Below, one piece after another: positions 4,351 to 28,672 of a DNA stretch of 35,109 nucleotides. A program made the position numbers and the translations under genes. The stretch lies in NCBI GenBank assembly GCA_021777635.1, contig JAJYDI010000002.1, positions 1-35,109 on the forward strand. Direction: 5' to 3'. The notes below the pieces were generated by a model that did not search any database, had not been told where the DNA came from, and was given only the letters and a program-made list of their open reading frames with translations. This DNA is from Pseudomonadota bacterium (lineage in GTDB: Bacteria > Pseudomonadota > Gammaproteobacteria > Xanthomonadales > Rhodanobacteraceae). Positions within the stretch are counted from its first letter, which is position 1, and each line of letters begins with the position of its first letter.

Positions 4351-4378
4351 GTTCCGCCCTCCGATGCCATTTGACGCC

Positions 4379-6892: not shown

Positions 6893-6895
6893 ACC

Positions 6896-9327: not shown

Positions 9328-9338
9328 AGGAGGGCACC

Positions 9339-10727: not shown

Positions 10728-10737
10728 GGAGGCCCTC

Positions 10738-14308: not shown

Positions 14309-16317
14309 TGCACGGCTTCCACACCGTCGCCGTGGTCGGCGCCGGCACCATGGGCTCGGCGATTGCCCAGCATTTTCTGATGAAGGGCCTCACCGTGCGC
14401 CTTGTCGACACGACTGCCGAGAGGCTTGCGCGCGGCCAGCGCCTGATTGAGGCATCACTCGACGAAGCGGTGACGCGGCGCCTGCTCGATGCCGAAGGGC
14501 GCGGGGCCATCCTTGCGCGGCTGCATCCGACGCTGGATCCGGCCGACCTGGCCGACGCCGACCTGGTGGTTGAAGCAGTGTTCGAGGATCTCGCACTGAA
14601 GCGCGAACTTCTGGGTCGGCTCGAAAGTATCGTCGCGCAAGACTGTGTGCTCGCCACCAACACCTCCTCCTTCCGGGTGAGCGACGTCGCCTCCGGACTG
14701 GCGCATCCGCAACGCCTGATTGGCACGCACTACTTCTACCATGCCGCCAAGAACAAGCTGATCGAGCTGATCCCTGGTGTGCGTAGCGATCCGGGCCTGC
14801 TGCGCGAACTGGAAGGTTTCTACTCCGAACTCGGCAAGATCCCGATCCGCGCCGCCGACGCGCCCGGCTTCGCGGTCAACCGTTTCTTCGTGCCGTGGTT
14901 GAATGAGGCAGTGCGTGTGTACGAGGAGGGTCTCGGCAGCATTCCCGGCATCGACGCGGTGGCGCGCGCGACCTTCGGTGTTGGCATGGGCCCGTTCGCA
15001 CTGATGAATGCCACTGGTGTGCCAATCGCGCGCCATGCCGCCGAAGGACTGTCGGCGCGTCTGGGATCGTTCTATGCACCTGCCAAGACCTTGTGCCGGC
15101 AGGTCGACAGCGGCTGCGACTGGGATCTCGCTGACGATCGAGTTGCGGACGATGGTAGCGAGCAGCCTGAAACAATCCGCCGCCGTCTAATCGGTGCCGC
15201 ACTCGGCTGCGCCGCGGCCCTGGTCAGCGAGGGCGTTTGCGACGTCACCGCCACCGACCTTGGCGCGCGCGCAGGCCTGCGCTGGCCGCGCGGCCCGTTC
15301 GAGCTGTGCGCTGCGCTCGGCAAGGACGTCGTCGCCGGCATGGTCAGTGAGCTGTTCGGGCGATGGGGACTGCCGCTTCCGGCAGTGCCGTTCGCCCAGG
15401 CTGAGGAGCTGGCGCTGGAATGGGTGCAACGTGAAGTCCACGGCGATACCGGTCTGATCGTCTTTAACCTGCCCGATCGCATGAATGCGCTGGGCGAGGC
15501 AGTGCTGGGACAGCTGGAAGCCGCCTGGGCGCAACTGGAAGTCGACCCAGCGGTGCAGCGGGTGTTTTTCTGTGGTCGCGGCAAGGCCTTCGTGGCTGGC
15601 GCCGACATCCGCTTCTTCCTCGATGCCATCGATGCCGGCGATTTCGAACGCATCCAGACCTTTACCGAACGTGGCCAGCGCCTGCTCGCGCGTATCGAAG
15701 CCTCCCCAAAATTGACTTGCGCCTTCCTCGATGGCCTGACGTTGGGCGGTGGCCTTGAGCTGGCGCTTGCGTGCCGCTACCGGCTTGGCACCCGCAACAC
15801 CTCGATCGCTCTGCCGGAAACCGGCATCGGCATTTATCCCGGACTCGGTGGCACCCAGCGCACCCGCCGCCTGCTGGGCAGGGGCGTGGCCAAATTCCTG
15901 ATCGCCACCGGCCGCCGAGTCGATGCCGCGCGTGCATTGCAATTCGGCCTGATCGACGCCGAGATCGATCCGCCGAGGCATTTGCAGGATTTGGCGGCGG
16001 TGCCGCTGCCGGCGCCTCAGTCCGGTCGCTGCTCGCAGCCGGAACTGGAGCAGGCATTCGCCGACTATCGGGGTGAACTGGACGCGGCCACGCTAGCGTC
16101 GCCGGATCTGGCGGCGTTCGCGCGCGAGCTCTCGCGCAAGGCGCCGCTCGCACTGGCGACCGCAATGCGACTGGTGGATGAGGGACTTGCGCTCGACCTG
16201 CGGGCCGCGCTTGCGCTGGAGCTGGCCGGCCTGAAGACGATCTTCACCACTCGCGACGCCCGCGCTGGCCTCGCCAGCGTGCTCGACGGGAGCCGCCCGC
16301 AATACCTCGGACAGTGA
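14308..16317 (+). CDS. Fused 3-hydroxyacyl-CoA dehydrogenase / enoyl-CoA hydratase (dehydrogenase domain first)
   Basis: This 669-aa bifunctional beta-oxidation enzyme has an N-terminal NAD-binding dehydrogenase: VAVVGAGTMGSAIAQHF, ATNTSSFRVSD, IGTHYFYHAAKNKLIELIPG with the catalytic His, and DAPGFAVNRFFVPWLNEA. A second C-terminal HAD-type domain follows to about 360. The C-terminal crotonase domain (about 375-669) has NALGEAV, GRGKAFVAGADIRFFLDA, DGLTLGGGLELALACRYRL and ALPETGIGIYPGLGGTQR, keeping both glutamates expected of hydratases. The order HAD then ECH is the reverse of FadB/FadJ. Candidate substrates are 3-hydroxypimelyl-CoA (lower benzoyl-CoA pathway) or cinnamoyl-CoA-type intermediates. 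Confidence 0.87.
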   Translation: MHGFHTVAVVGAGTMGSAIAQHFLMKGLTVRLVDTTAERLARGQRLIEASLDEAVTRRLLDAEGRGAILARLHPTLDPADLADADLVVEAVFEDLALKRELLGRLESIVAQDCVLATNTSSFRVSDVASGLAHPQRLIGTHYFYHAAKNKLIELIPGVRSDPGLLRELEGFYSELGKIPIRAADAPGFAVNRFFVPWLNEAVRVYEEGLGSIPGIDAVARATFGVGMGPFALMNATGVPIARHAAEGLSARLGSFYAPAKTLCRQVDSGCDWDLADDRVADDGSEQPETIRRRLIGAALGCAAALVSEGVCDVTATDLGARAGLRWPRGPFELCAALGKDVVAGMVSELFGRWGLPLPAVPFAQAEELALEWVQREVHGDTGLIVFNLPDRMNALGEAVLGQLEAAWAQLEVDPAVQRVFFCGRGKAFVAGADIRFFLDAIDAGDFERIQTFTERGQRLLARIEASPKLTCAFLDGLTLGGGLELALACRYRLGTRNTSIALPETGIGIYPGLGGTQRTRRLLGRGVAKFLIATGRRVDAARALQFGLIDAEIDPPRHLQDLAAVPLPAPQSGRCSQPELEQAFADYRGELDAATLASPDLAAFARELSRKAPLALATAMRLVDEGLALDLRAALALELAGLKTIFTTRDARAGLASVLDGSRPQYLGQ

Positions 16318-16331
16318 AGGAGAACCCTCGC

Positions 16332-17594
16332 ATGAGCGCCGCCGCCACTGGTTTCCGCAACGACAACGGCATCGGCGCGCTATTCGACGACGTCTACCTG
16401 CTCGACGGTCGGCGCACGCCGTTCGGCAAGTTCTGCGGGGCCCTGTCCACGGTCTCGCCAACGGATCTTGGAATCCATGCCGCGCGTGCCGCGATCGCCG
16501 CAGCCGGCGTCGACGCCGCAGAAGTCGACCAGAGCATCGTCGCAAATATCGGCCAGGCCAGCGCCGATGCCTTCTTTCTGCCGCGCCACATCGCGCTGTA
16601 CGCCGGGACCCCAGAGAGGCGCCCTGCCTTGCTGGTGCAGCGCATCTGTGGTTCCGGCCTCGATGTGCTGGCGCAGGCTGGCGAGCAGATCGCGCTCGGT
16701 AAGGCGCAGCTGGTGCTGGGTGTCGGCACCGACAACATGAGTCGCTTCCCGCTGGTCTCCTACTCGGCGCGCCAGGGCTTCGCGCTAGGCCGACCGGAGT
16801 TCACCGACTTGCTGTGGGAGGCGCTGGACGACACCGCCGCGGTGCCGATGGGCCGCACCGCCGACAACCTCGCCGAGCGCTACGGGCTCAGCCGTGCCGA
16901 AGTCGATGGCTTCGCCATGGCTAGTCAGCAGCGCTACGCCGCGGCGCGCTCGCGGGGCTTCTTTGCCGGGGAACTCGCGGCGCTGCCAGGACAGGGCAGC
17001 TTCGAGATCGAAGGGCTGAAAACGCGCTCGTTCCGCTGCAAGAGCAAAGCTGGCCTGACCGAGGATGAGCATCCGCGCGAAACCAGCGCCGAGCAGCTCG
17101 CCTCGCTGTCGCCGGTATTCAGCAAGGCCGGGCCGACTACCGCCGGCTCGGCGTCCGGCATCGTCGACGGTGCCGCGGCGGTGCTGGTGGCTGCGGGCGA
17201 GTTCGTGCGGGCGCACGGCCTGAGACCGATCGCCAGGCTTCGCGGCCATGCCGCGGTCGGGGTGGCGCCAGCCTATATGGGCATCGGTCCGGCACCGGCC
17301 ATCCGCGCCCTGCTCGGGGCTGTCGGAATGAGCCTTGGCGATATTGGCCGCTTCGAGATCAACGAGGCATTCGCCGCCCAGTGTCTGGCGGTGGCGCGCG
17401 AGCTCGGCATCGAACACGAACGCCTGAACGTCAACGGCGGCGCCATCGCCATCGGCCACCCGCTCGGTGCGACCGGCCTTCGCTTGGCCCTGACCTTGAT
17501 GCACACCCTGCAGCGCGACGATGCCAGCTTAGGCATCGCCTCGGCCTGCGTCGGCGGAGGCCAGGGCGTCGCCCTGATGCTGGAACGATGCTGA
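16332..17594 (+). CDS. Thiolase (acetyl-CoA C-acyltransferase), copy 1
   Basis: The enzyme cleaves a 3-oxoacyl-CoA with CoA, releasing acetyl-CoA. It has the nucleophilic cysteine in LVQRICGSGLDVLAQAG (Cys106), NEAFAAQCLAVARELG, NVNGGAIAIGHPLGATGLR with the active-site His, and the second catalytic cysteine in SACVGGGQGVALML. Length is 420 aa from ATG 16332, supported by AAGGAG at 16317-16322. Likely role: 3-oxopimelyl-CoA to glutaryl-CoA plus acetyl-CoA, or release of an aromatic acyl-CoA from its side chain. Which thiolase in this operon does which cannot be told from sequence. Confidence 0.9.
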   Translation: MSAAATGFRNDNGIGALFDDVYLLDGRRTPFGKFCGALSTVSPTDLGIHAARAAIAAAGVDAAEVDQSIVANIGQASADAFFLPRHIALYAGTPERRPALLVQRICGSGLDVLAQAGEQIALGKAQLVLGVGTDNMSRFPLVSYSARQGFALGRPEFTDLLWEALDDTAAVPMGRTADNLAERYGLSRAEVDGFAMASQQRYAAARSRGFFAGELAALPGQGSFEIEGLKTRSFRCKSKAGLTEDEHPRETSAEQLASLSPVFSKAGPTTAGSASGIVDGAAAVLVAAGEFVRAHGLRPIARLRGHAAVGVAPAYMGIGPAPAIRALLGAVGMSLGDIGRFEINEAFAAQCLAVARELGIEHERLNVNGGAIAIGHPLGATGLRLALTLMHTLQRDDASLGIASACVGGGQGVALMLERC

Positions 17595-18346
17595 AGCGAC
17601 TCGACAAGCGGGTCGCTCTGGTCACCGGCGCCGGCCGCGGCATCGGCGCGGCGATCGCCCGCCGCCTGGCAGAGGAAGGTGCCGCACTGGTGCTGGTCGA
17701 TCGCGATGCCAGCGCGCTCACGGCACTTGCCGAAGCCATGCAGGCGGACGGCCAGCAGGCGCTGCCACTGGTAACCGACGTCGCCGATCGGGCGCAGGTC
17801 GAGGGCCTGATGGCTCAGGTTGGCGAGACTCTGGGTGGGCTCGACATCCTGGTCAACAATGCCGGCATTATCCGCGACGGCTTCCTCGCCAAGCTCAGTG
17901 ACGCCGACTGGGACCGAGTGTTGGAGGTCAACCTGAAAGGCCCGTTCTTGTGCTGCCAGGCCGCTTTGCCACTGCTGCGCCAGCGCGAGCGCAGCGGAAT
18001 CATCAACATCGCCTCGCGCGCCTGGCTTGGCAACATCGGCCAGGCCAACTACGCGGCCAGCAAGGGCGGAGTGGTCAGCCTGACCCGCACCTTGGCACTG
18101 GAGCTCGCGCGTTACCGAATCAACGTCAACGCGGTGGCGCCGGGGCTGATCGACACGCCGATGACCCGCGCCATGCCCGAGTCCGCGCGCGAGCGCCTGC
18201 TTCGTATGCAGCCGACCGGCGAAATGGGTACGGTCGAGGACATCGCCGCTGCGGTCGCGTTTCTCGCCAGTCCAGACGCGCGCTTCATCACCGGGCAGGT
18301 GCTGCACGTCGACGGCGGCAAGAGCTGCGGGCTGCTGGCGCTGTAG
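17588..18346 (+). CDS. Short-chain dehydrogenase/reductase (FabG-like)
   Basis: A 252-aa classical SDR: cofactor motif TGAGRGIGAAIARRL, DILVNNAGIIRDGFLAKL, the catalytic Ser in NIASRAWLGNIGQ, YAASK, and a C-terminal HVDGGKSCGLL. An acidic residue after the second strand (VLVDRDASAL) suggests NAD(H). Flanked by two thiolases, it probably oxidises a 3-hydroxyacyl-CoA, giving a second dehydrogenase besides the HAD-ECH fusion. It starts at ATG 17588, overlapping the thiolase by 7 bases. Confidence 0.88.
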   Translation: MLKRLDKRVALVTGAGRGIGAAIARRLAEEGAALVLVDRDASALTALAEAMQADGQQALPLVTDVADRAQVEGLMAQVGETLGGLDILVNNAGIIRDGFLAKLSDADWDRVLEVNLKGPFLCCQAALPLLRQRERSGIINIASRAWLGNIGQANYAASKGGVVSLTRTLALELARYRINVNAVAPGLIDTPMTRAMPESARERLLRMQPTGEMGTVEDIAAAVAFLASPDARFITGQVLHVDGGKSCGLLAL

Positions 18347-18348
18347 CC

Positions 18349-19518
18349 ATGGCCAGCTCACGCGTCAGTTCCCGTTTTGGTACCGGCGCCCGCCTGGTGG
18401 CGGCACGGCGCACGCCGATCGGCCGCAGCCATGCGGACAAGGGCGCGCTGCGCGGTCTGCGCGCGGACGAACTGCTGGCACGGCTGATCAGGGATGTCGC
18501 ACAGACCCTGCCCGAGCCTGCTGCAATCGACGACGTGCTGATCGGCTGCGTCGGCCAGCATCTGGAGCAGGGCAAGAACATCGCTCGCCTGGCCTCGTTG
18601 CTGGCCGGACTGCCCGACAGCGTGCCGGGCGCCACCTTTAACCGGCTGTGCGCGTCGAGCCTGGAAGCCTTCAACAGCGCGGCGACTCGGATCGCCGCCG
18701 GTGACGCCGACCTGCTGCTGGCCGGCGGTGTGGAGCACATGCACCACGTGCCGATGACCGCGGCAATCGACTACCACCCGGCGCTGCTTGCGCGGCCGCC
18801 GTTTCCGTTCAACAACATGGGCCTGGCCGCCGAATGGCTGGCTGCACGCGATGGCATCGGCCGCGCGGCGCAGGACGACTGGGCGCTGACAAGCCATCGG
18901 CGCGCAGTCGCGGCGCAGGGCAGTGGCCGTTTCGATGCCGAGCTGCTGCCGCTGGAAGTGGACGGCGCGCGCATCGACGCCGACCAGTTGCCGCGTGCCG
19001 ACGCGAGCCTGCAATCGCTGTCCGAACTCAAGCCGGCTTTCAAGGCTGACGGCAGCGTCACCGCCGGCAACGCCTCGCCGTTCAGTGATGGCGCAAGCTT
19101 GGCGCTGTTGGCCTCGGCAGATGCTTGCGCACGACTTGGCCTAGCGGCACGCGCCGAGGTACTCGGCGCGGCGGTGATCGGTACCGCACCGGAAGCGATG
19201 GGCCGCAGTCCGGTGCTGGCGATCCGCCGCCTGCTCGAACGCAGCCGCCTGAATGTCGCCGACATCGACCGCTTTGAGATCAATGAGGCCTTCGCCGCGC
19301 AGCTGTTATCCAACGTGCGCGAGCTCGAACTCGACCCGGAGCGGGTTAACCCCTGGGGTGGTGCCATCGCCCTAGGCCATCCGCTGGGCGCCACCGGCAC
19401 CCGCCTGATTACCACCTTGCTGCATGGCCTGGAGGCCGATGGTGGCGAGTTCGGCATTGCCGCCCTCTGCGTCGGCCACGGCCAGGGCGTCGCCACCCTC
19501 ATCCGGAGGCTGCACTGA
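18349..19518 (+). CDS. Thiolase (acetyl-CoA C-acyltransferase), copy 2
   Basis: A second thiolase of 389 aa with catalytic Cys101 (FNRLCASSLEAFNSAA), GGVEHMHHVPM, NEAFAAQLLSNVRELELD, NPWGGAIALGHPLGATGTR and the second Cys in ALCVGHGQGVATL. It differs clearly from copy 1, so it is not a recent duplicate and probably has another chain-length or aryl specificity. It is two bases after the SDR, and its stop overlaps the ATG of hcrC by one base, which ties the beta-oxidation block to the 4-hydroxybenzoyl-CoA reductase genes. Confidence 0.9.
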   Translation: MASSRVSSRFGTGARLVAARRTPIGRSHADKGALRGLRADELLARLIRDVAQTLPEPAAIDDVLIGCVGQHLEQGKNIARLASLLAGLPDSVPGATFNRLCASSLEAFNSAATRIAAGDADLLLAGGVEHMHHVPMTAAIDYHPALLARPPFPFNNMGLAAEWLAARDGIGRAAQDDWALTSHRRAVAAQGSGRFDAELLPLEVDGARIDADQLPRADASLQSLSELKPAFKADGSVTAGNASPFSDGASLALLASADACARLGLAARAEVLGAAVIGTAPEAMGRSPVLAIRRLLERSRLNVADIDRFEINEAFAAQLLSNVRELELDPERVNPWGGAIALGHPLGATGTRLITTLLHGLEADGGEFGIAALCVGHGQGVATLIRRLH

Positions 19519-20036
19519 TGGACACCTGCAGCAAATACACGGCGCGGCAAAGCGGAGTGGCGCGCCTGCTCAGCCTCGAGGTCAACGGCAAGCGACAGCA
19601 GCGCGCGGTGGCGGCAGACATCACCCTGCTTGATTTCCTACGCGAGGAATTGGGCCTGACCGGCAGCAAGCGCGGATGTGACCTCGGCGAGTGCGGCTGC
19701 TGCGCGGTGCTGGTCGATGGCCGGCCGATGCTGGCCTGCCTGCTGCCGGCCGCCGACCTCGAACATAGCGCGATCACCACGATCGAGGGCGTTGCCAAGG
19801 GCACCACGCTGCACCCGCTTCAGCAGGCGATGATCGACGAGGGAGCCGTGCAGTGCGGCTACTGCACGCCGGCGATGGTGATCAACGGCGTGCACCTGTT
19901 CTCGGGCGAGTCGCATCCGGACGCTGAGGCCATCCGCACCTGCATCTCGGCCACCATCTGCCGTTGCACAGGCTACAACCGCATCGTGCAGGCGTTCGAG
20001 AGCACCGCTGATGGACTCGCGGGGGAGCGGCGGTGA
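19518..20036 (+). CDS. hcrC: 4-hydroxybenzoyl-CoA reductase small (gamma) subunit, two [2Fe-2S] clusters
   Basis: This is the iron-sulfur subunit of the molybdenum enzyme that reductively removes the para-hydroxyl of 4-hydroxybenzoyl-CoA, forming benzoyl-CoA. Seen are the plant-type cluster motif CDLGECGCCAVLVDGRPMLAC and the second cluster motif with QCGYCTPAMVI and ATICRCTGYNRIV, as in all xanthine oxidase-family small subunits. At 172 aa it is slightly longer than the usual roughly 160, owing to an N-terminal extension of about 15 residues. The identity among family members rests on the HcrB cysteine set and the benzoyl-CoA context. Confidence 0.88.
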   Translation: MDTCSKYTARQSGVARLLSLEVNGKRQQRAVAADITLLDFLREELGLTGSKRGCDLGECGCCAVLVDGRPMLACLLPAADLEHSAITTIEGVAKGTTLHPLQQAMIDEGAVQCGYCTPAMVINGVHLFSGESHPDAEAIRTCISATICRCTGYNRIVQAFESTADGLAGERR

Positions 20037-22417
20037 ACGTCTACCGCATCGTCGGCACGCCGCAGCCGCAGATCGACGCCCGCGACAAGGTCACCGGGCG
20101 TGCGCGCTATACCGACGACATCCGGCTGCCGAGCTGCCTGCACGCGGCGATCCTGCGTTCGCCGCACGCCAGCGCGCGCATCCGGGCGATCGACATGGCG
20201 CGTGCCGCGGCACTGCCCGGCGTCAAGGCGGTACTGACGGGCGCCGATTTCGAGCGCACCTTCGGCGTGCTGCCGATCAGCAAGGACGAACCGGCGCTGG
20301 CGCGCGAGCGGGTGCGGTACGTCGGTGAGCCGGTCGCCGCGGTGGCGGCGGAAACTGCCGAACTCGCCGCCGCCGCCGTGGCACTGATCGCGGTCGACTA
20401 CGCGCCGACGCCGCCGGTGCTCGAAGCGCGCCAGGCGCTCAAGCCCACCAGCGACCCGCTGCACCCCGAGCTGCGGCGCGAGAACAATTTGCACAAGCAG
20501 GTCGAGCAGCGGTTCGGCGATCCCGAGGCCGGCTTCGCGAAAGCCGACATCGTGATCGAGAAGCGCTTCATCTTCCCAAGCGTCACCCACGCCTTCACCG
20601 AACCGCATGCAGTGCAGGTGGAAATCGACGGCCGTGGCAACCTCACCGTGTACAGCGCAACGCAGGTTCCGCACTACGTGCATCTGGCGCTGGCGGAGGT
20701 GCTGGGTATTGACGAGCACCGGGTGCGGGTAATCAAGCCGCACCTCGGCGGCGGCTTCGGCGGCAAGAGCGACCCGTTCCCGCACGAGATGATCGCGGCC
20801 AAGCTGGCCCTTGTCACCGGCCGCAACGTGCGCCTGCGTTTCTCGCGTGAGGATGTGTTCTGCAGCCACCATGGCCGTCATCCGACTCAATTGACGATGA
20901 AGCTCGGCTTCCACCACGCGCGCGGCATCACCGCCCTGACCGGCGATTTTCTGATTGACGGCGGTGCCTACGGCAGCTTCGGTGTGGTCACCACCTACTA
21001 CAACGGCGTGCTGCTGCAAGGCCCATATCCGGTGCCGAACTTCGCTTTCCGCTGCCGCCGCATGTACACCAACAAGCCGATGTGCGGCGCGATGCGTGGC
21101 CACGGCGGCGTCAACCCGCGCTTCGCTTACGAGGTGCTGATGGACATGGCCCTGGTCCAGTCGGGGCTCGATCCCTGCCAGGCGCGCATCGACCTGATCC
21201 ATCGCGAGAACACGCTCACCTGCAACGAGTTCCGGATCACTTCGGTTGGGCTCAAGCGTGGGCTTGAGGAGGCCATGCGCCGAAGCGGTTGGCACGAGAA
21301 ATACGGCAAGCTTCCGTACGGCAAGGGTATCGGCGTCGCCTGCGGCTTCTTCATCAGCGGCAGCGCCCTGCCGATCCACCGCAACGAGCGGCCTGCCAGT
21401 ACGGTGCGGATGACTGTCGAATTCGACGGCGCGGTGACGGTTTATTCGGGCGCGTCCGACATCGGCCAGGGTAGCGACACCCTGCTGGCGATGATGGCGG
21501 CCGAAGTGCTGGGCGTGGAGCTCGACCAAGTCAAGGTGGTAGCAGCCGATACCCGGTTGACCCCGGTTGACCTCGGCAGTTACAGCTCGCGGGTGACCTT
21601 CATGGCTGGCAACGCCGCCCGCAATGCAGCGATTCGCGTGCGCCGGCTGCTGGTCGCGGCGGCCTGCCGGCTGCTGGCTCTGCCCGAGCCCGAGTATCCG
21701 ACGCCGGCCTCGCCCGAGGACCAGTTCCGCCAAGGCGGACGTGCGGCAGATTTCGACGCCGACTTCCTGGGCGCCAATCCCGACTACGGCGATGGCTTCG
21801 AGTTCGCCTGCGGCCGCATCCGCCATCTCGACAGCGGCAAGGAAACCGGTTTCATCGCGGCCGTGCACGCGGCGATCGAAGGTCCGGGCATCCTGCAGAC
21901 GGTCGGCAGCTACCGCGCGCCAAAGCTCGGCGGCAGCTTCAAAGGTGCCGGCGCCGGCCTGTCGCCGGCGTACAGCTTCACGGCCTTCATCGTAGAGGTC
22001 AGCGTCGATCCAGAGACCGGCTTCGTCAAGGTCGAGCGCGCCACTTGCGCGCACGACTGCGGCTTCGCGCTGAACCCGCTGGCGGTGCGCGGGCAGATCG
22101 AGGGCTGCTTCCACATGGGCATGGGCCAGGCACTGATGGAGGAAGTGCTGCACTACGACGGTGCGGTGCAGAACGCCGGCTTTCTCGAATACAAGATTCC
22201 ATCGCCGTTCGAGCAGCCCGAAATCGACCTCGTGCCCTCGATCAGCAACGAGAGCGAGGGCCCGTTCGGTGCCAAGGAAGCCGGCGAGGGGCCGCTGGCA
22301 CCGGTGATCCCGGCGATCGCCAATGCGATCTTTGATGCGGTTGGCGTGCGCCTGTTCGAATTGCCGTTGCGCCCCGACCGGGTACTGGCCGCAATGCGCA
22401 AGGCTGCTGACCGATGA
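20033..22417 (+). CDS. hcrA: 4-hydroxybenzoyl-CoA reductase large (alpha) subunit, molybdopterin-binding
   Basis: This is the catalytic molybdenum cofactor subunit of the xanthine oxidase family. It has an N-terminal domain GRARYTDDIRLPSCLHAAIL and YVGEPVAAVAAET, then the cofactor-binding segments HLGGGFGGKSDPFPHEM, CGAMRGHGGVNPRFAYE and GASDIGQGSDTLLAMMAAE. GPFGAKEAGEGPLAPV carries the conserved catalytic glutamate (about residue 749). It has 794 residues and begins with GTG at 20033, overlapping hcrC by 4 bases, with GGGGGAGCGG as ribosome site. In this enzyme electrons flow from ferredoxin to Mo, the reverse of xanthine oxidase. Confidence 0.9.
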   Translation: MNVYRIVGTPQPQIDARDKVTGRARYTDDIRLPSCLHAAILRSPHASARIRAIDMARAAALPGVKAVLTGADFERTFGVLPISKDEPALARERVRYVGEPVAAVAAETAELAAAAVALIAVDYAPTPPVLEARQALKPTSDPLHPELRRENNLHKQVEQRFGDPEAGFAKADIVIEKRFIFPSVTHAFTEPHAVQVEIDGRGNLTVYSATQVPHYVHLALAEVLGIDEHRVRVIKPHLGGGFGGKSDPFPHEMIAAKLALVTGRNVRLRFSREDVFCSHHGRHPTQLTMKLGFHHARGITALTGDFLIDGGAYGSFGVVTTYYNGVLLQGPYPVPNFAFRCRRMYTNKPMCGAMRGHGGVNPRFAYEVLMDMALVQSGLDPCQARIDLIHRENTLTCNEFRITSVGLKRGLEEAMRRSGWHEKYGKLPYGKGIGVACGFFISGSALPIHRNERPASTVRMTVEFDGAVTVYSGASDIGQGSDTLLAMMAAEVLGVELDQVKVVAADTRLTPVDLGSYSSRVTFMAGNAARNAAIRVRRLLVAAACRLLALPEPEYPTPASPEDQFRQGGRAADFDADFLGANPDYGDGFEFACGRIRHLDSGKETGFIAAVHAAIEGPGILQTVGSYRAPKLGGSFKGAGAGLSPAYSFTAFIVEVSVDPETGFVKVERATCAHDCGFALNPLAVRGQIEGCFHMGMGQALMEEVLHYDGAVQNAGFLEYKIPSPFEQPEIDLVPSISNESEGPFGAKEAGEGPLAPVIPAIANAIFDAVGVRLFELPLRPDRVLAAMRKAADR

Positions 22418-23427
22418 GCGCACAACCGGCCCACTTTGAGTTCGAGCGCCCGGACAGCTTGGCGGCGCTGATCGCCCGACTCGCGCAGTTGTCCGCCGCC
22501 GGCCACGACTATGCGCTCGCCGCCGGTGCCACCGACCTTATGCCGCAGATCAAGCTGGGGGTTAAATCACCTGCGCTGCTGATCTCGCTCAATGGTCTGC
22601 CCGAACTGGACGGTGTGCAGGCGCGAGCCGATGGCGGCCATCGCCTCGGCGCTCTGACCCGGCTCGCCGACGTCGCCGGCAACGCGCAACTGCGCCAGCA
22701 CTATCCGGCCCTGTGCGCCGCCGCCGGCCGCGTCGCCAGCCCGCCGATCCGCCAGCGCGCCAGCCTCGGTGGCAACCTGTTGGTCGACAACCGCTGCATC
22801 TACATCAACCAGAGCCCGCTCAATCGCTCTGCCCACGCCGCCTGCTTCAAGGCCGGCGGCGAGGTCTGCCACTTGGTCAAGTCGGCGGTACGAGGCGAGC
22901 TGCCTCAATGCCAGGCGCGTTTCGTCTCCGATACCGCGCCGGTGCTGCTGCTGCTCGATGCGGTGCTGTACCTGGTCTCGCCGCGCGGCGAGCGGCGCCT
23001 GCCGCTGGCGCAATTCTATTGCGACGACGGCATGCAGCGTCATGTCCTCTCAAGTGACGAGGTACTGGTCGCCATCGAGCTTCCGCCAGCGGACGGCTTG
23101 CGCATCGACTACGACAAGCTGGCAATTCGCCGGGCGCTGGACTTCCCCTCGTTGGGCATCGCCCTGGGCGTGCGCGCGGACGCCGTGGGCTCGATCAGTG
23201 AGCTGTCGCTGGCGATGACCGGCATCGGCACCCATCCCGGGTGCTGGCGCTTTACCGCCACCACGCACAAAAGCGCGAACGCCATGCTGGACGCCGCCTG
23301 CGCCGCTGCGCGCGATTCCGCCACGACCTACCTGCAGGACTTTTTCCCGCGTGACTACCGCAAGCGCATGATCGATGTGTTCATCCACAGGGCCGCGCAA
23401 CGGCTGGGAGTCGCCCAATGGACGTGA
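22414..23427 (+). CDS. hcrB: 4-hydroxybenzoyl-CoA reductase medium (beta) subunit, FAD and extra [4Fe-4S]
   Basis: This FAD-binding subunit of the CO dehydrogenase/xanthine oxidase type has LAAGATDLMPQIKLG and QRASLGGNLLVDNRC near the flavin site. HcrB differs from relatives by a loop with four cysteines holding an additional [4Fe-4S] cluster that adjusts the potential for reduction. Here Cys128, Cys144, Cys152 and Cys166 lie in the right loop, supporting the HCR assignment over other hydroxylases. The last interval is longer than I recall for Thauera. Length is 337 aa against roughly 324. It overlaps the following gene by 10 bases. Confidence 0.88.
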   Translation: MSAQPAHFEFERPDSLAALIARLAQLSAAGHDYALAAGATDLMPQIKLGVKSPALLISLNGLPELDGVQARADGGHRLGALTRLADVAGNAQLRQHYPALCAAAGRVASPPIRQRASLGGNLLVDNRCIYINQSPLNRSAHAACFKAGGEVCHLVKSAVRGELPQCQARFVSDTAPVLLLLDAVLYLVSPRGERRLPLAQFYCDDGMQRHVLSSDEVLVAIELPPADGLRIDYDKLAIRRALDFPSLGIALGVRADAVGSISELSLAMTGIGTHPGCWRFTATTHKSANAMLDAACAAARDSATTYLQDFFPRDYRKRMIDVFIHRAAQRLGVAQWT

Positions 23428-24617
23428 GGCCGATCGATGTGAAGCAGGTCATGCGTGACTACTTCGTTGATCTCGGAGAGGCAGCGAAAGACCCCGCGCG
23501 AAGGGTTGCGTGGTGCACCTCGGTGGGCCCGGCCGAGATCCTGCGGGCGATGGGCTTCGCGGTCTATTTTCCGGAAAACCATGGCGCCCTGCTCGGCGCC
23601 ACCCGGGTGTCCACCGATACCATTCCGGTTGCCAACGCGCACGGCTATTCGCCGGAGATTTGCAGCTACCTCACGTCCGACATCGGCGCCTGCCTGAAGG
23701 GTGTGACTCCGTTGAGCAAGGCTTACGGCCTGGACGGTGTGCCACGGCCGGATGTGCTGGTTTACTGCACCAACCAATGCAAGGACGTGATGCACTGGTT
23801 CGCCTGGTACGCGCGGCAATGGAATGTGCCGCTGCTCGGCATCCACCCGCCAAACCACCTGCCGGAAGTGCTGCCCGAACATGTGGCCGATGTCGCTGCC
23901 CAGTACCGGCGCATGATTGGACAGCTCGAAGCCATCACCGGCACACCGCTCGATCCAGAAGCGCTGCGCCTGGTCGTAGCCCGCTCGCGCGAGGCCACCG
24001 ACCTGTGGGAAGCGGTGCTCAATACCGCACGGGCCCGACCGGCACCGCTGAGCTTCTTCGATGGCGCAATCGTCATGGGCCCAATCGTGGTGCTGCGCGG
24101 TACCCAGACCGCCATCGACTATTACCGGGCGCTGCTCGCCGAGCTGCAGATCAAGGTCGCCGGCGGGCAGGCGGCGGTACCGGGCGAGCGCCTGCGCATC
24201 TACTGGGAGGGCATGCCGGTGTGGGGCCGGCTGAGGCACCTGTCCGACCTGTTCGCCAACAACCGCGCCACGGTAGTCGCCTCGACCTACTGCAATTCTT
24301 GGATCTTCTCCGATTTCGACGCCGCGAAGCCGCTGGACAGCATGGCGCGGGCTTACCTGAAGATCTTCATCAACCGCGATGATGCCTACAAGGAGGCCTA
24401 CGTCGAGCGGCTGGCCGACGAATTCGCTATTGACGGCGTGGTCTACCACGCCGCCCGGACGTGCCCGAACAACAGCAACAGCCACTACAACTTGCCGCAG
24501 CGACTGGCTGCCAAGGGCATTCCCGGCATCGTCGTCGATGGCGACCTGTGCGACTTGCGCTGTTTTTCCGACGAGCAGAGCACCACTCTTATTGAGGCCT
24601 TCCTGGAAACGCTATGA
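23418..24617 (+). CDS. Second HgdB/BcrB-family iron-sulfur reductase component, function unknown
   Basis: This 399-aa protein of the 2-hydroxyacyl-CoA dehydratase/benzoyl-CoA reductase family is distinct from BcrB and BcrC. It has nine cysteines: 33, 82, 92, 117, 121, 292, 349, 378, 382. Segments such as AWCTSVGPAEILRAMGF, EICSYLTSDIGACLKG, LVYCTNQCKDVMHWFAWY, IYWEGMPVWGRLRHLSDLF and VDGDLCDLRCFSDEQS align by eye with those of BcrB and HgdA/B. It is followed by one ATPase partner rather than two. Such single-subunit plus single-activase pairs resemble the double-cubane cluster proteins (YjiM/YjiL type), which reduce small molecules with ATP, but the cysteine layout is closer to the BCR branch. 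The substrate is unknown. The position between hcrB and the ferredoxin suggests a low-potential reduction of an aromatic or alicyclic CoA ester. Confidence 0.85.
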   Translation: MDVRPIDVKQVMRDYFVDLGEAAKDPARRVAWCTSVGPAEILRAMGFAVYFPENHGALLGATRVSTDTIPVANAHGYSPEICSYLTSDIGACLKGVTPLSKAYGLDGVPRPDVLVYCTNQCKDVMHWFAWYARQWNVPLLGIHPPNHLPEVLPEHVADVAAQYRRMIGQLEAITGTPLDPEALRLVVARSREATDLWEAVLNTARARPAPLSFFDGAIVMGPIVVLRGTQTAIDYYRALLAELQIKVAGGQAAVPGERLRIYWEGMPVWGRLRHLSDLFANNRATVVASTYCNSWIFSDFDAAKPLDSMARAYLKIFINRDDAYKEAYVERLADEFAIDGVVYHAARTCPNNSNSHYNLPQRLAAKGIPGIVVDGDLCDLRCFSDEQSTTLIEAFLETL

Positions 24618-25519
24618 GCACCGTCGCCGACTGCGATCGCCCGAGCACCGATTCCGAGGTCCGAACCGAGGTGTTCTGGGGCGTGGACTGCGGCAGCGCC
24701 GAAATCAAGGTTGCCGCGCTCGATCGCGAAGGGCGGCTGCTGACCACGCGCAGGCTCCGCACACTGTTTCCGCTGGTCGAGCACGTGCACCGTGGCCTGG
24801 CCGCCCAAGGTGACGAACTCTCGGCGATTGCCGAAGGTGATCGCGACCGGCTGCCGATCGACGGCCGGCAGCCGAGTCTGCGCCCCGGCCACAAGGTATT
24901 CGCCACAGGCTACGGGCGGCACCACATCGGCTTCGTGCACGGCCAGCTGACCGAGATCAAGGCTCATTACCTCGGCGTGCAGCACCAACTCCGGCTACAG
25001 CAGGACTACACCATCATCGACATCGGCGGCCAAGACGCCAAGGTAATTCGTGCCACCCCGAGCCGGGTCGAGCAGTTTGCCATCAACCGCAAGTGCGCGG
25101 CCGGCACCGGCGCCTACATTGAGGAACTCGCGCACCGGCTGGAAGTGCCGATGCAGGAGCTGCCGCGGCTCGCCGCCGCGCACGACAAGGTTCTTACCCT
25201 CAACAGCTACTGCACAGTGTTCTCCGGGCAGGAAGTGATCAAACTGCTGATGCAGGGCGAGCGGGTGGAGAACCTGATCCATGCCCTGTATCGATCGGTG
25301 GTCAAGCGGGTGCTGGAAATGACCGCGATCGATACCGACACCCTGGTGTTTTCCGGTGGCGTGATGAGCCACCACCCCATTCTCGTGCCGCTGTTCGCCG
25401 AACGCTTCGGCGAGGTGCGCACCATTCTCGCTCCCAATGCGCAGTTTTGCGGTGCGCTGGGCGCGGCAATCCATGGCATCAACGAGGAGAGCGACGATGG
25501 CCTACCGAATCACGAGTGA
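24614..25519 (+). CDS. ASKHA-family ATPase/electron activase paired with the second HgdB-like protein
   Basis: This 301-aa protein has the motifs of HgdC/BcrD-type archerases: FWGVDCGSAEIKVAALD, ATGYGRHHI, IIDIGGQDAKVIRATPSR, KCAAGTGAYIEELAHRLEV (Cys161), SYCTVFSGQEVIKLL (Cys200) and FSGGVMSHHPILVPLF. The cluster cysteines are 39 residues apart, exactly as in BcrA and BcrD. A homodimer would bind one [4Fe-4S] between two monomers, as in HgdC. It overlaps the HgdB-like gene by 4 bases (ATGA) and the ferredoxin gene by 23. Its likely job is ATP-driven electron injection from that ferredoxin into the HgdB-like protein. It could also be a spare activase for BcrBC. Confidence 0.87.
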   Translation: MSTVADCDRPSTDSEVRTEVFWGVDCGSAEIKVAALDREGRLLTTRRLRTLFPLVEHVHRGLAAQGDELSAIAEGDRDRLPIDGRQPSLRPGHKVFATGYGRHHIGFVHGQLTEIKAHYLGVQHQLRLQQDYTIIDIGGQDAKVIRATPSRVEQFAINRKCAAGTGAYIEELAHRLEVPMQELPRLAAAHDKVLTLNSYCTVFSGQEVIKLLMQGERVENLIHALYRSVVKRVLEMTAIDTDTLVFSGGVMSHHPILVPLFAERFGEVRTILAPNAQFCGALGAAIHGINEESDDGLPNHE

Positions 25520-25787
25520 TTGCAACCTGTGCGACGCCTGCGTGCTCGAATGCCCGAACGAGGCCATCACGGTCGGCGCCAACATCTATACGATCGATCC
25601 GGCCAAGTGCACCGAATGCGTCGGTTTCTTCGACGAAGCGCAATGCGCGGCGGTGTGCCCCCAGGAATGCTGCGAGCCCGACCCCGACTGTATCGAGCCC
25701 GAGGCGGCACTGCTCGAGCGCGCCCGTCGCCTGCATCCGGACGAGGAATTCTCAGGCGATGTGCCCTCGCGCTTTTCCAGCCACTGA
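25497..25787 (+). CDS. fdx: 2[4Fe-4S] ferredoxin of the Allochromatium/Thauera type
   Basis: A 96-aa ferredoxin with CNLCDACVLECPNEAI (CX2CX2CX3C) and CTECVGFFDEAQCAAVCP (CX2CX8CX3C). The long CX8C loop and the C-terminal extension are typical of the low-potential ferredoxin that carries electrons from KorAB to benzoyl-CoA reductase and HCR. The start is ATG 25497, inside the end of the ATPase gene. Its location just before korAB fits. Confidence 0.92.
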   Translation: MAYRITSDCNLCDACVLECPNEAITVGANIYTIDPAKCTECVGFFDEAQCAAVCPQECCEPDPDCIEPEAALLERARRLHPDEEFSGDVPSRFSSH

Positions 25788-25820: not shown

Positions 25821-27704
25821 ATGAACCCCGTCCACGCCACTGTCGATCTGCCCGATCCGGACCTGATCCAGGTCCAGACCCTGGACGAGATCACCGTCAA
25901 GTTCGCCGGCGATTCCGGTGACGGTATCCAGCTGGCGGGGCAGAAGTTCGCCCTGCTGGCCAGCGCCGCTGGCGAGACCGTGCGCACCATGCCCGACTAC
26001 CCGGCTGAAATCCGGTCGCCGGCCGGCACCCCCGGTGGCGTCTCCGGCTTCCAGGTGCGTATCGGCAGCGCCGGCATCCACACTCCCGGCGATCGCATCG
26101 ATCTGCTGGTGGCGTTGAATCCGGCTGCATTGCGCACCAATCTTTCCGAGCTCAAGACAAACGGCATCGTCGTCCTCGACGAAAGTGCATTCACCGCAAC
26201 CAATCTGATCAAGGCGGGTTACGCCAGCAATCCGCTGGAAGACGGCTCCTTGCGCGACTACCGGGTGTTCCCGGTGCAGATCGGCAAGCTCACTCGCAGT
26301 GCGCTCAAGGGTCTGGCGCTGTCGACCAAGGAGACCGACCGCAGTCGCAACTTCTTTGCGCTAGGGCTGTTTTGCTGGCTGTTCCCGCGCCCCAGGGCGG
26401 CCGTCGACGAGTGGATCGAGCAACGTTTCGCCGCCAATCCGGAAGCGGCCAAGGCCAACCATCGTGCCTTCCACGCTGGCTGGAACTACGGCGAGACCGC
26501 CGAGTATTTTGTCAGCCCGTTGCGCGTAGCCGCCGACCAGCGCATGCGCGAGGCCGGTGTCTATCGCTTTGTCACCGGCAATGCGGCGCTCGCCAAAGGT
26601 TTGGTGCAGTCCGCCCGCCGCGCCGGGTTGTCGTTGTTCCTAGGCGGCTATCCGATCACACCGGCGACCGAGGTGATGCAGGAACTCGGCCGCTATCGTG
26701 ATCCCGACGTGCACATGTTCCAGGCCGAGGACGAGATCGCCGCGATCGGCAGCGCCATCGGCGCCGCTTTCGCCGGCGCGCTTGGGGCGACCAGCACCTC
26801 TGGCCCGGGGCTGTCGCTGATGGGCGAGTTCCTCAACCTCGCAGTGATCGCCGAGCTGCCACTGGTGGTGATCGACGTGCAGCGCGCAGGCCCGTCCACT
26901 GGCATTCCGACCAAGTCCGAGCAGGCCGACTTGCTGCAGGCCCTGCACGGCCGGCACGGCGAATCGCCGCTGCCGGTGCTGGCTGCCGCCACGCCTGCGG
27001 ACTGCTTCGACACCGTGGTCGAGGCCAGCCGCATCGCCCTGCGTTACATGACGCCGGTGGTCGTGCTCAGCGACCTGTCGCTGGCCAGCAGCGCCGAAGT
27101 CTGGCGTGAGCCGGCGCTGGATGAGCTGCCCGAGTTCACACTGCACCGCAGCGTCGATGCGGCGGATTTCAAACCCTACCGGCGCGATCCGGAAACCCTG
27201 TCCCGGCCCTGGGTGGTGCCCGGCCGCCCGGGCATGGAGCACGTGATCGGTGGTCTGGAGAAAGCCGGTGAGAGCGGTGCGGTGTGTTACGAGGCTGAAA
27301 ACCACGCGGCGATGGTGCAGCTGCGCCACGACAAAGTCGCCGGCATCGCCCGCGACTATCCGGTCACGGTGGTGCATGGCGGCACCGATGCCCGCCTGCT
27401 GCTGCTGGGTTGGGGCAGCAGCTTCGGCGCCATCCGCGAGGCCACCGATCGCCTGCGCCAGCGCGGCCGTTTGGTGGCCTGCCTGCATCTGCGCCACCTC
27501 AACCCGCTGCCGCGAGACTTGGGGGAAGCATTGCGCAACCACCGCGCCGTACTGGTGATCGAGAACAACAGCGGCCAACTTTGGCAGCAGCTGCGGGCGA
27601 ACTACCTGCTCGACCTGCAGCGCCTGAACAAAGTGCAAGGCACCGCGTTCCGGATCGCCGAGATCGTCGAGGCCGCCGAATCGCTGCTGGAGACCCTCCA
27701 ATGA
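25821..27704 (+). CDS. korA: 2-oxoglutarate:ferredoxin oxidoreductase, fused gamma-alpha subunit
   Basis: This subunit helps oxidise 2-oxoglutarate to succinyl-CoA and CO2, reducing ferredoxin. It has a gamma domain first (about 20-200: VKFAGDSGDGIQLAGQKFAL, MPDYPAEIRSPAGTPGGVSG), then the alpha pyrimidine-binding domain (GGYPITPATEVMQELGRY, FQAEDEIAAIGSAIGAAFAG, STSGPGLSLMGEFLNLAV, QRAGPSTGIPTKSEQADL). Length 627 aa suits the fused type. The 33-base gap before it is the largest in the operon, and no promoter was seen there. In T. aromatica the homologous KorAB supplies the electrons for dearomatisation. Confidence 0.92.
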   Translation: MNPVHATVDLPDPDLIQVQTLDEITVKFAGDSGDGIQLAGQKFALLASAAGETVRTMPDYPAEIRSPAGTPGGVSGFQVRIGSAGIHTPGDRIDLLVALNPAALRTNLSELKTNGIVVLDESAFTATNLIKAGYASNPLEDGSLRDYRVFPVQIGKLTRSALKGLALSTKETDRSRNFFALGLFCWLFPRPRAAVDEWIEQRFAANPEAAKANHRAFHAGWNYGETAEYFVSPLRVAADQRMREAGVYRFVTGNAALAKGLVQSARRAGLSLFLGGYPITPATEVMQELGRYRDPDVHMFQAEDEIAAIGSAIGAAFAGALGATSTSGPGLSLMGEFLNLAVIAELPLVVIDVQRAGPSTGIPTKSEQADLLQALHGRHGESPLPVLAAATPADCFDTVVEASRIALRYMTPVVVLSDLSLASSAEVWREPALDELPEFTLHRSVDAADFKPYRRDPETLSRPWVVPGRPGMEHVIGGLEKAGESGAVCYEAENHAAMVQLRHDKVAGIARDYPVTVVHGGTDARLLLLGWGSSFGAIREATDRLRQRGRLVACLHLRHLNPLPRDLGEALRNHRAVLVIENNSGQLWQQLRANYLLDLQRLNKVQGTAFRIAEIVEAAESLLETLQ

Positions 27705-28672
27705 TCCCAACCCCTGTCATTCCGGAAGCCACCGCGGAGTTGCCGACACGCCCCGAGCGCTCGTACTTCCTCAGTGGCACCGCACCACGCTGGTGTCCCG
27801 GCTGTGGCTGCTTTGCGGTGCTCAAGTCGCTGACCGCCACCTATGCCCGCATCGGAGTGCCGCGCGAACGGCTGGTCACCGTCTCCGGCATCGGCTGCAC
27901 CTCGCGCCTTCCGTACTACACAGCCACCTACGGATTCCATACGTTGCACGGTCGCGCCCCGACCGTGGCGATGGGGGTCAAACTGGCCAATCCCGAACTA
28001 TCGGTCTGGGTTATTTCCGGCGACGGCGATGCGCTGGCAATCGGCACTAGCCACACTCTGCATCTGTTGCGGCGCAACCCCGACATCAAGATGCTGCTGC
28101 TGAACAACCAGATCTACGGGCTGACCAAGGGCCAGGCCTCGCCCACCAGCCCGCTCGGCCTGGTTACGCGCTCGACTCCCTATGGCGTGGCCGATACCCC
28201 GATCAATCCGGTCAACCTGGCGCTGGCCGCCGGCGCCACCTTCGTCGCGCGTGTCGCCGACACCAACGGCGCGATGATGGAAGAGGTATTTGCCGCGGCG
28301 CACGCTCATCGCGGCGTGGCCTTCGTCGAGGTGCTGCTCAATTGCATCACCTTTCACGAAGGCGCTTACGCCATGATTACCGGCAAGGACACACGCGACG
28401 AGTACGCGCTGACGATGCATCCCGGCCAGCCGTTGCTCTACGGCAAGCAACAGCGCAAGGTGCTGGTGGCCGACAACGGCCGGATCCTGGCGCTGTCGCT
28501 GGCCGACGGGGAGGCGGCGCCCGAACAGGCCCTGCGCCACGACCCGCAAGCGGGCGACACCGGCTTAGCCCAGCAGCTTGCCTTGATGGCGCCGCCCGGT
28601 CTGCCCTGCGCCCTGGGTATCTTCAGGCAGGTGCAGGCACCGGTCTACGGCCTCGACCTGAAGCACGACTGA
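27701..28672 (+). CDS. korB: 2-oxoglutarate:ferredoxin oxidoreductase beta subunit
   Basis: This thiamine diphosphate and [4Fe-4S]-binding subunit (323 aa) has APRWCPGCGCFAVLKSL and VSGIGCTSRLPYY, both with cluster cysteines, and the TPP motif GDGDALAIGTSHTLHLL ending at LLLNNQIYGLTKGQASPTS. VEVLLNCITFHEGAY follows. It starts at ATG 27701, overlapping korA by 4 bases. Confidence 0.93.
   Translation: MIPTPVIPEATAELPTRPERSYFLSGTAPRWCPGCGCFAVLKSLTATYARIGVPRERLVTVSGIGCTSRLPYYTATYGFHTLHGRAPTVAMGVKLANPELSVWVISGDGDALAIGTSHTLHLLRRNPDIKMLLLNNQIYGLTKGQASPTSPLGLVTRSTPYGVADTPINPVNLALAAGATFVARVADTNGAMMEEVFAAAHAHRGVAFVEVLLNCITFHEGAYAMITGKDTRDEYALTMHPGQPLLYGKQQRKVLVADNGRILALSLADGEAAPEQALRHDPQAGDTGLAQQLALMAPPGLPCALGIFRQVQAPVYGLDLKHD

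What the first reader, a model, noticed from the sequence alone, without database searches (positions are those of the whole stretch)
23418..25519. Orphan two-gene HgdB-like / ASKHA ATPase module embedded between hcr and ferredoxin-korAB genes
Besides the complete bcrCBAD, the operon encodes one further BCR/2-hydroxyacyl-CoA dehydratase-family protein (nine cysteines) and one further activase (Cys161 and Cys200, spaced as in BcrA and BcrD). Both are translationally coupled to hcrB upstream and to the ferredoxin downstream. A 1+1 composition differs from the four-subunit benzoyl-CoA reductases and from HgdABC. It recalls the double-cubane cluster protein/reductase pairs (YjiM/YjiL type), which reduce small molecules with ATP. 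Yet segments like CTNQCKDVMHWFAW look closer to BcrB. Possibilities: an extra low-potential reductase for a substituted or alicyclic CoA ester; a reactivation system for HCR or BCR; or an ATP-driven side reductase. I know of no described role for such a pair inside an anaerobic aromatic operon.
Basis: partly seen in the sequence, partly recalled or inferred. Interest (0 to 1): 0.8.

Follow-up and report, generated by a model that had tools for sequence, protein, structure and literature searches.

The report
Lone dehydratase-like enzyme beside benzoyl-CoA genes
Two adjacent genes in an oxygen-free aromatic-degradation operon encode a one-piece relative of enzymes that normally need two different catalytic pieces, plus its ATP-driven starter; it may help feed tyrosine- or phenylalanine-like compounds into ring breakdown, which has yet to be tested.

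Summary
In detail: a 399-aa HgdB/BcrB-family protein (HGD, 23418-24617) and a 301-aa ASKHA activase (ACT, 24614-25519) overlap each other, hcrB and the ferredoxin gene. HGD is not a double-cubane protein and not a BcrB. In a 59-row tree it forms its own clade (100/100) in the catalytic-subunit half of the family (HadB, BcrB, MbdO, BzdO); its best structural and profile match is HadB. In 7 of 36 genomes it is the only family member found, so it seems to need no partner subunit. In 146 genomes of one class, HGD occurs in 16, and all 16 carry the ring-cleavage marker Oah/BamA, against 7 of the 130 others. A PanE-type 2-oxoacid reductase gene lies in 29 of 41 long HGD loci; deltaproteobacterial loci often add an acyl-CoA ligase, beta-oxidation enzymes and indolepyruvate:ferredoxin oxidoreductase. 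Best reading: a single-subunit (R)-2-hydroxyacyl-CoA (aryllactyl-CoA) dehydratase that sends arylpyruvates through cinnamoyl- or coumaroyl-CoA to (4-hydroxy)benzoyl-CoA. Against it: one tree makes BcrB/MbdO its sister (95/93), the operon's hcr genes score under their family cut-offs, and no activity is known. A new variant of a known kind; moderate confidence.

The parts
23418..24617 (+). HGD: single-subunit HadB/BcrB-like catalytic protein (PF06050), proposed 2-hydroxyacyl-CoA dehydratase
24614..25519 (+). ACT: ASKHA activase with Cys161/Cys200 (TIGR00241 154 bits, over its cut-off of 125.4)
25497..25787 (+). YfhL-type 2[4Fe-4S] ferredoxin (profile match starts at residue 21 of ORF 25437-25787)
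25821..27704 (+). korA-like 2-oxoacid:acceptor oxidoreductase alpha (TIGR03710 614 bits, over its cut-off)
27410..28672 (+). korB-like beta subunit (ORF as listed; the match starts at residue 123, so the true start is later; TIGR02177 236 bits, under its cut-off of 262)
13331..14308 (+). PanE/ApbA-family reductase, proposed arylpyruvate reductase
11586..13388 (+). AMP-forming acyl-CoA ligase, substrate not assigned
14308..16317 (+). fused 3-hydroxyacyl-CoA dehydrogenase / enoyl-CoA hydratase
16314..17594 (+). thiolase 1
17950..19518 (+). thiolase 2 (best match starts at residue 150)
19518..23427 (+). hcrCAB-like genes (hcrC 19518-20036, hcrA 20033-22417, hcrB 22414-23427), all under the NCBIfam cut-offs for 4-hydroxybenzoyl-CoA reductase
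6896..11589 (+). bcrCBAD class I benzoyl-CoA reductase
4091..5464 (+). oah, 6-oxocyclohex-1-ene-1-carbonyl-CoA hydrolase (match from residue 100 on)
32810..34003 (+). aromatic amino acid transaminase (possible source of the arylpyruvate; outside the operon)

Best explanation
HGD is a single-subunit, probably homodimeric member of the 2-hydroxyacyl-CoA dehydratase / class I benzoyl-CoA reductase radical family, and ACT is its activase. Proposed mechanism: reduced ferredoxin (the YfhL-type ferredoxin, charged by KorAB) gives one electron to the ACT homodimer's [4Fe-4S] cluster (Cys161/Cys200); ATP hydrolysis injects it into the [4Fe-4S] cluster of HGD held by Cys82, Cys121 and Cys349; the cluster then drives radical elimination of water from an (R)-2-hydroxyacyl-CoA. 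Proposed pathway: tyrosine or phenylalanine -> arylpyruvate (transaminase) -> aryllactate (PanE-family reductase) -> aryllactyl-CoA (CoA ligase) -> coumaroyl- or cinnamoyl-CoA (HGD) -> beta-oxidation -> 4-hydroxybenzoyl-CoA (then HCR) or benzoyl-CoA -> BCR. Shown by computation: family, own clade, cysteine ligands by alignment, absence of a partner subunit in some genomes, gene linkage, co-occurrence with a ring-cleavage marker. Inferred: homodimer, cluster type, electron route, reaction, substrate, direction.
Against: In the catalytic-half tree HGD is sister to BcrB/MbdO (95/93), and grouping it with HADs is only just not rejected (p-AU 0.058, or 0.097 with pairA_L096). Known HADs are heterodimers. 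HGD carries two more near-invariant cysteines than the HadB site needs (Cys33 81 of 81, Cys292 80 of 81), role unexplained. In the window PanE and the ligase lie 10 kb upstream in the same operon and may serve other steps: no 6-hydroxycyclohexenecarbonyl-CoA dehydrogenase was seen among the ORFs scanned, and a (hydroxy)benzoate-CoA ligase would be needed anyway. The window PanE is 17-28% identical to 21 of the 25 other PanE rows aligned (25-33% in tblastn segments), so the two groups of PanE may differ in substrate. Of 41 long loci, 12 have no PanE in the stretch held. The hcr genes are under their family cut-offs, so 4-hydroxybenzoyl-CoA as the product is not secure. The transaminase is not in the operon, and IorA is in 0 of 15 alpha/gamma loci.
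Confidence: 0.45

Rival explanations
1. HGD/ACT is a homodimeric ATP-dependent aryl-CoA (or dienoyl/enoyl-CoA) reductase of BCR type for a substituted ring.
For: Sister of BcrB/MbdO at 95/93 in the catalytic-half tree; embedded with hcr-like and bcr genes in the window; nearly confined to genomes with Oah/BamA in the class sampled; in six deltaproteobacterial loci (L029, L033, L035, L038, L047, L049) a hydratase 40-43% identical to the window's dch-like protein stands just upstream of the activase.
Against: HAD-type PEN motif and highest scores to HadB; only one activase; linkage to PanE, CoA ligase and, in deltaproteobacteria, IorAB is not explained; class I bcrB is over its cut-off in only 21 of 48 HGD genomes.
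Confidence: 0.27
2. HGD/ACT is a double-cubane-cluster pair of YjiM/YjiL type that reduces small molecules.
For: 1+1 gene composition; Cys82, Cys121, Cys292 and Cys349 align with four of the six double-cubane ligands.
Against: NF040772 69 bits v cut-off 350; the fifth ligand has no counterpart and the first is one residue out of register; DCCP and six NF040772 proteins fall in the other half of the tree, 100/100.
Confidence: 0.05
3. HGD pairs with BcrC as an alternative catalytic subunit, giving a hybrid BCR/HAD.
For: BcrC is encoded in the same operon, and BCR/HAD subunits are homologous.
Against: In 7 of 36 genomes HGD is the only PF06050 protein found (MAGs may be incomplete); class I bcrB is over its cut-off in only 21 of 48 HGD genomes.
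Confidence: 0.06
4. HGD/ACT reactivates or maintains HCR or BCR.
For: Translational coupling to hcrB in the window; hcrA-hcrB directly upstream in 11 of 15 alpha/gamma loci; in G011-G013, where they are not next to HGD, an HcrA-like gene (542-568 bits) lies 11-16 kb away.
Against: Four alpha/gamma loci (L006, L010, L013, L014) have HGD/ACT without hcr in the stretch held, and hcrA was found in only 2 of the 65 other loci; 7 of 36 genomes show no other PF06050 protein.
Confidence: 0.04

Closest known systems
(R)-2-hydroxyisocaproyl-CoA dehydratase HadBC with activase HadI (Clostridioides; PDB 3o3m, 4eht)
   Different: No beta subunit beside it; Cys33 and Cys292 added; 28% identity; own clade; sits in benzoyl-CoA degraders
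Phenyllactyl-CoA dehydratase FldABC of Clostridium sporogenes (recalled, and named in passages of PMC13416013)
   Same: Proposed reaction and substrate class
   Different: Fld has several subunits with its own CoA-transferase and, as I recall, serves a fermentative reductive pathway; no Fld sequence was compared here
Class I benzoyl-CoA reductase BcrCBAD, MbdONPQ, BzdNOPQ
   Same: Same family; BcrB/MbdO may be the sister clade
   Different: BCR has four subunits with two ASKHA subunits, and BzdN carries a double-cubane cluster (PMC11971306); TIGR02260 128 bits v cut-off 486.55
Double-cubane cluster protein DCCP/DCCP-R (YjiM/YjiL type; PDB 6eno)
   Same: One catalytic plus one activase gene
   Different: Other half of the tree; the six-Cys ligand set is not complete

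Membership tests
2-hydroxyacyl-CoA dehydratase (HAD) | Catalytic subunit with three Cys for a [4Fe-4S] cluster with an open iron site | tested here: met
   Cys82/121/349 align with the HadB/BzdO ligands, 81 of 81 (ligands from PMC11971306); that the cluster forms was not tested
2-hydroxyacyl-CoA dehydratase (HAD) | Heterodimer with a beta subunit encoded alongside | tested here: not met
   No second PF06050 gene beside HGD in the window; sole copy found in 7 of 36 genomes
2-hydroxyacyl-CoA dehydratase (HAD) | Score over the NCBIfam HadB cut-off | tested here: not met
   208 v 750 bits; that model is specific to one enzyme
2-hydroxyacyl-CoA dehydratase (HAD) | Groups with HAD catalytic subunits in a tree | tested here: inconclusive
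   Own clade, nearer BcrB/MbdO in the best tree; HGD+HAD not rejected, p-AU 0.058 and 0.097
2-hydroxyacyl-CoA dehydratase (HAD) | Single ASKHA activase with two cluster Cys | tested here: met
   TIGR00241 over cut-off; Cys161/200
2-hydroxyacyl-CoA dehydratase (HAD) | ATP-dependent dehydration of (R)-2-hydroxyacyl-CoA | not testable with these tools
   needs enzyme assay
Class I benzoyl-CoA reductase | Two catalytic plus two ASKHA subunits | tested here: not met
   1+1 genes; the operon's four-subunit BCR is bcrCBAD
Class I benzoyl-CoA reductase | Score over the BcrB cut-off | tested here: not met
   128 v 486.55 bits
Class I benzoyl-CoA reductase | Nested within BcrB/MbdO or BzdO | tested here: not met
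   HGD is a separate clade, 100/100 and 100/99, outside BcrB/MbdO and BzdO; a sister relation to BcrB/MbdO is the best tree
Double-cubane cluster protein | Six Cys ligands for [8Fe-9S] | tested here: not met
   Four align, the first is offset by one, the fifth has no counterpart: a Cys anywhere in 293-345 in only 3 of 81
Double-cubane cluster protein | Score over NF040772 cut-off | tested here: not met
   69 v 350 bits
Double-cubane cluster protein | Groups with DCCP in a tree | tested here: not met
   Opposite halves, 100/100

The most novel reading that the evidence does not exclude
HGD/ACT defines a third, single-subunit class of the HAD/BCR radical family, with a five-cysteine metal site unlike both the three-Cys [4Fe-4S] and the six-Cys double-cubane site, and it runs an oxidative route by which benzoyl-CoA degraders take tyrosine and phenylalanine through aryllactyl-CoA and coumaroyl- or cinnamoyl-CoA to 4-hydroxybenzoyl-CoA or benzoyl-CoA. 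(A route from phenylpyruvate through cinnamoyl-CoA to benzoyl-CoA has been put forward on paper for a benzene degrader, PMC13416013; an enzyme of this class was not identified in the passages I saw.)
Probability: 0.3. Interest if true: 0.75.

Novelty: new variant of a known kind. Interest (0 to 1): 0.6.

Why it matters
If right, anaerobes that respire aromatic compounds use clostridial-type radical dehydration to carry the intact ring of aromatic amino acids to benzoyl-CoA, besides the known route through arylacetate.

Tried and rejected

Selections and rows left out of counts: loci shorter than 19 kb in the long-locus counts (41 of 80 kept); for I gave 48 of the 80 loci (one per genome, mostly longer ones), for 44, for 17, for together 36; 12 of the 17 loci had shown PanE.

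Full report
WHAT IS THERE. The window holds a long run of + strand genes: oah, a dch-like hydratase, a TetR-like regulator, bcrCBAD, an AMP-forming CoA ligase, a PanE-family reductase, a fused 3-hydroxyacyl-CoA dehydrogenase/enoyl-CoA hydratase, two thiolases with an SDR between them, hcrCAB-like genes, HGD, ACT, a YfhL-type ferredoxin and korAB. I call it an operon from spacing and strand; transcription was not tested. The hcr-like genes fall under the NCBIfam cut-offs (hcrC 152 v 258, hcrA 816 v 995, hcrB 217 v 405 bits).

TREE. With 27 HGD rows and 32 reference rows (59 in all) HGD is one clade, 100/100, inside the catalytic half with HadB, BcrB, MbdO and BzdO; DCCP, six NF040772 rows, BcrC, MbdN, BzdN and HadC make up the other half, 100/100. 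In a second tree of 38 catalytic-half rows HGD is sister to BcrB/MbdO at 95/93; the grouping HGD+HAD is not rejected (p-AU 0.058; 0.097 with pairA_L096), and the program warns of long branches, this join among them. So its nearest relative is open, and the tree leans against my reading.

METAL SITE. PMC11971306 (abstract, passages and section 8 read) gives BzdO [4Fe-4S] ligands Cys95/128/380 and BzdN [8Fe-9S] ligands Cys36/73/100/263/293/327. In 81 HGD sequences (window plus 80 loci) Cys82, Cys121 and Cys349, which align with the first set, are kept in 81 of 81; Cys33 in 81, Cys292 in 80, Cys382 in 66. Cys292 aligns with the fourth double-cubane ligand; the fifth has no counterpart (a Cys anywhere in 293-345 in 3 of 81), and Cys33 is one residue off the first. 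Gly37 (81 of 81) stands where HadB and the two rows that group with it have Phe, so there may be room for something beside the cluster. Five near-invariant cysteines instead of three or six is unexplained. Glu53, the counterpart of BzdO Glu65, is kept in 81 of 81. The PEN motif around it (79 of 81; PET in 2) is found in HadB, the two rows that group with it and pairA_L096, and in none of the eight other catalytic-half reference rows (BcrB twice, MbdO, BzdO, and pairA of L085, L087, L088, L095).

NO PARTNER. PF06050 was sought in 36 genomes with HGD: in 7 (G006, G017, G021, G023, G028, G029, G031) HGD is the only hit. Most of these are MAGs and may be incomplete. Several others carry BcrC/BcrB-like pairs elsewhere. 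Hence homodimer, by inference.

LINK TO BENZOYL-CoA DEGRADATION. Oah/BamA (TIGR03200) passes its cut-off in 40 of 48 genomes with HGD and in 0 of 14 control genomes; of the 8 misses, G010, G018 and G021 hold partial matches (292, 426 and 217 bits) and G017, G030, G033, G044 and G045 only weak ones. bcrB passes in 21 of 48, among them 12 of the 14 alpha/gamma genomes searched. As a less selected test, 146 genomes of the class of Citrifermentans bremense (G007, itself chosen for its HGD) were searched for both at E<=1e-100: HGD in 16, Oah/BamA in 23, and all 16 are among the 23, so 16 of 16 v 7 of 130; Fisher p 2.8e-16, with no correction for kinship, and at least seven of the 16 were already known to me. 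HGD thus goes with ring degraders, with or without class I BCR.

NEIGHBOURS. hcrA-hcrB stand directly upstream in 11 of 15 alpha/gamma loci. In the other four (L006, L010, L013, L014) HGD-ACT follows a related CoA ligase; PanE lies within 4 kb in L006, L013 and L014, and an HcrA-like gene of 542-568 bits lies 11-16 kb away in their genomes and that of L010. In the 65 remaining loci ACT precedes HGD in most, and an ADP-forming acyl-CoA ligase is present in 46. Over all 80 loci: activase 74, ligase or CoA-transferase 55, PanE 42, thiolase 32, enoyl-CoA hydratase 28, 3-hydroxyacyl-CoA dehydrogenase 26, IorA 20 (0 of 15 alpha/gamma), PaaK-like ligase 19, ACT-domain protein 17; 39 of the 80 loci are under 19 kb, so these are lower bounds. 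PanE is in 29 of 41 long loci. In 17 genomes searched for PF02558, 15 have a PanE of 50 bits or more within 10.4 kb of HGD; G010 and G012 do not (168 and 31 kb away on the same contig). Twelve of those 17 loci had shown PanE, so the set is biased. I count 40 such PanE hits in about 70.5 Mb, so about 0.01 would be expected per span of that size (counted by eye). In 26 aligned PanE rows Asn126, Lys208, Asn212 and Ser278 are invariant; that such residues are catalytic in PanE is recalled. The window PanE is 17-28% identical to 21 of the other 25 rows, 40-44% to three alphaproteobacterial ones and 88% to that of L002. One PDB relative, 3wfi, is, as I recall, a D-mandelate dehydrogenase. L041 (C. 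bremense) shows the fullest set: ACT, HGD, ADP-forming ligase (79% to the annotated L021 protein), thiolase, enoyl-CoA hydratase, 3-hydroxyacyl-CoA dehydrogenase, CoA-transferase, IorA, an IorB-like protein and an ACT-domain protein.

READING. A reductase of 2-oxo acids, a CoA ligase, a HadB-like enzyme with one activase, then hydratase, dehydrogenase and thiolase form a complete route from arylpyruvate to an aryl-CoA shorter by one two-carbon unit; indolepyruvate:ferredoxin oxidoreductase in deltaproteobacteria and an aromatic transaminase beside the window operon (32810-34003, also in L002) point to aromatic amino acids. In the window the product would be 4-hydroxybenzoyl-CoA from tyrosine, which would explain hcrCAB and bcrCBAD in one operon, if the hcr-like enzyme is a true HCR. 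PMC9765128 (passages) describes phenylalanine going to phenylacetyl-CoA and 3-(4-hydroxyphenyl)propanoate going by beta-oxidation to 4-hydroxybenzoyl-CoA in Aromatoleum; the second shows the lower half of the route exists, the first that another route is known. PMC13416013 (passages) puts forward, for a benzene degrader, a route from 2-oxo-3-phenylpropanoate through cinnamoyl-CoA to benzoyl-CoA that would need a phenyllactyl-CoA dehydratase, and names a singular gene 30% identical to FldB, which may be this family; not tested. PMC1924859 (passages) reports a G. metallireducens activase with no catalytic subunits found, a different case.

LIMITS. No activity, cluster or substrate is shown. In the alpha/gamma group the ligase and PanE could serve the main benzoyl-CoA route. 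The BCR-sister tree keeps an aryl-CoA reductase alive.

Noticed in passing
window 4091-19518: No zinc-type 6-hydroxycyclohex-1-ene-1-carbonyl-CoA dehydrogenase (had) was seen between oah, dch and hcr among the ORFs scanned; the SDR at 17381-18346 or PanE might replace it.
   Followed up: no
window 19518-23427: All three hcr-like subunits score under their NCBIfam cut-offs; HcrA matches in two segments, as in its relatives. HcrB has four Cys (128, 144, 152, 166) that could hold the extra [4Fe-4S] of HCR (spacing compared from memory).
   Followed up: partly
window 31296-32666 (-), 32810-34003 (+), 34272-35105 (-): Tryptophanase/tyrosine phenol-lyase-like gene, aromatic transaminase and amino-acid permease beside the operon; the lyase is also present near the clusters in L001, L002 and L005. 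Substrate of the lyase undecided.
   Followed up: partly
window 29121-30422 (-): 433-aa ORF with no Pfam or NCBIfam match at the thresholds used, conserved at 67-87% in L001, L002 and L005 next to a hemerythrin-domain ORF.
   Followed up: no
window 6155-6892 (+): TetR-like regulator between dch and bcrC, its listed start overlapping the dch ORF.
   Followed up: no
L013, L014; L019, L030: Two HGD copies in inverted orientation on one gammaproteobacterial contig; three HGD copies in Geobacter argillaceus.
   Followed up: no
L096 1501-2664 (-), with L089: A HadB/BcrC-like gene pair in G025 whose catalytic subunit is 33% identical to HGD, the highest outside the clade among the rows printed.
   Followed up: partly
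G011, G012, G013 (genomes of L006, L010, L013): HcrA-like genes of 542-568 bits 11-16 kb from HGD, besides others of 780-798 bits elsewhere in the same genomes.
   Followed up: no
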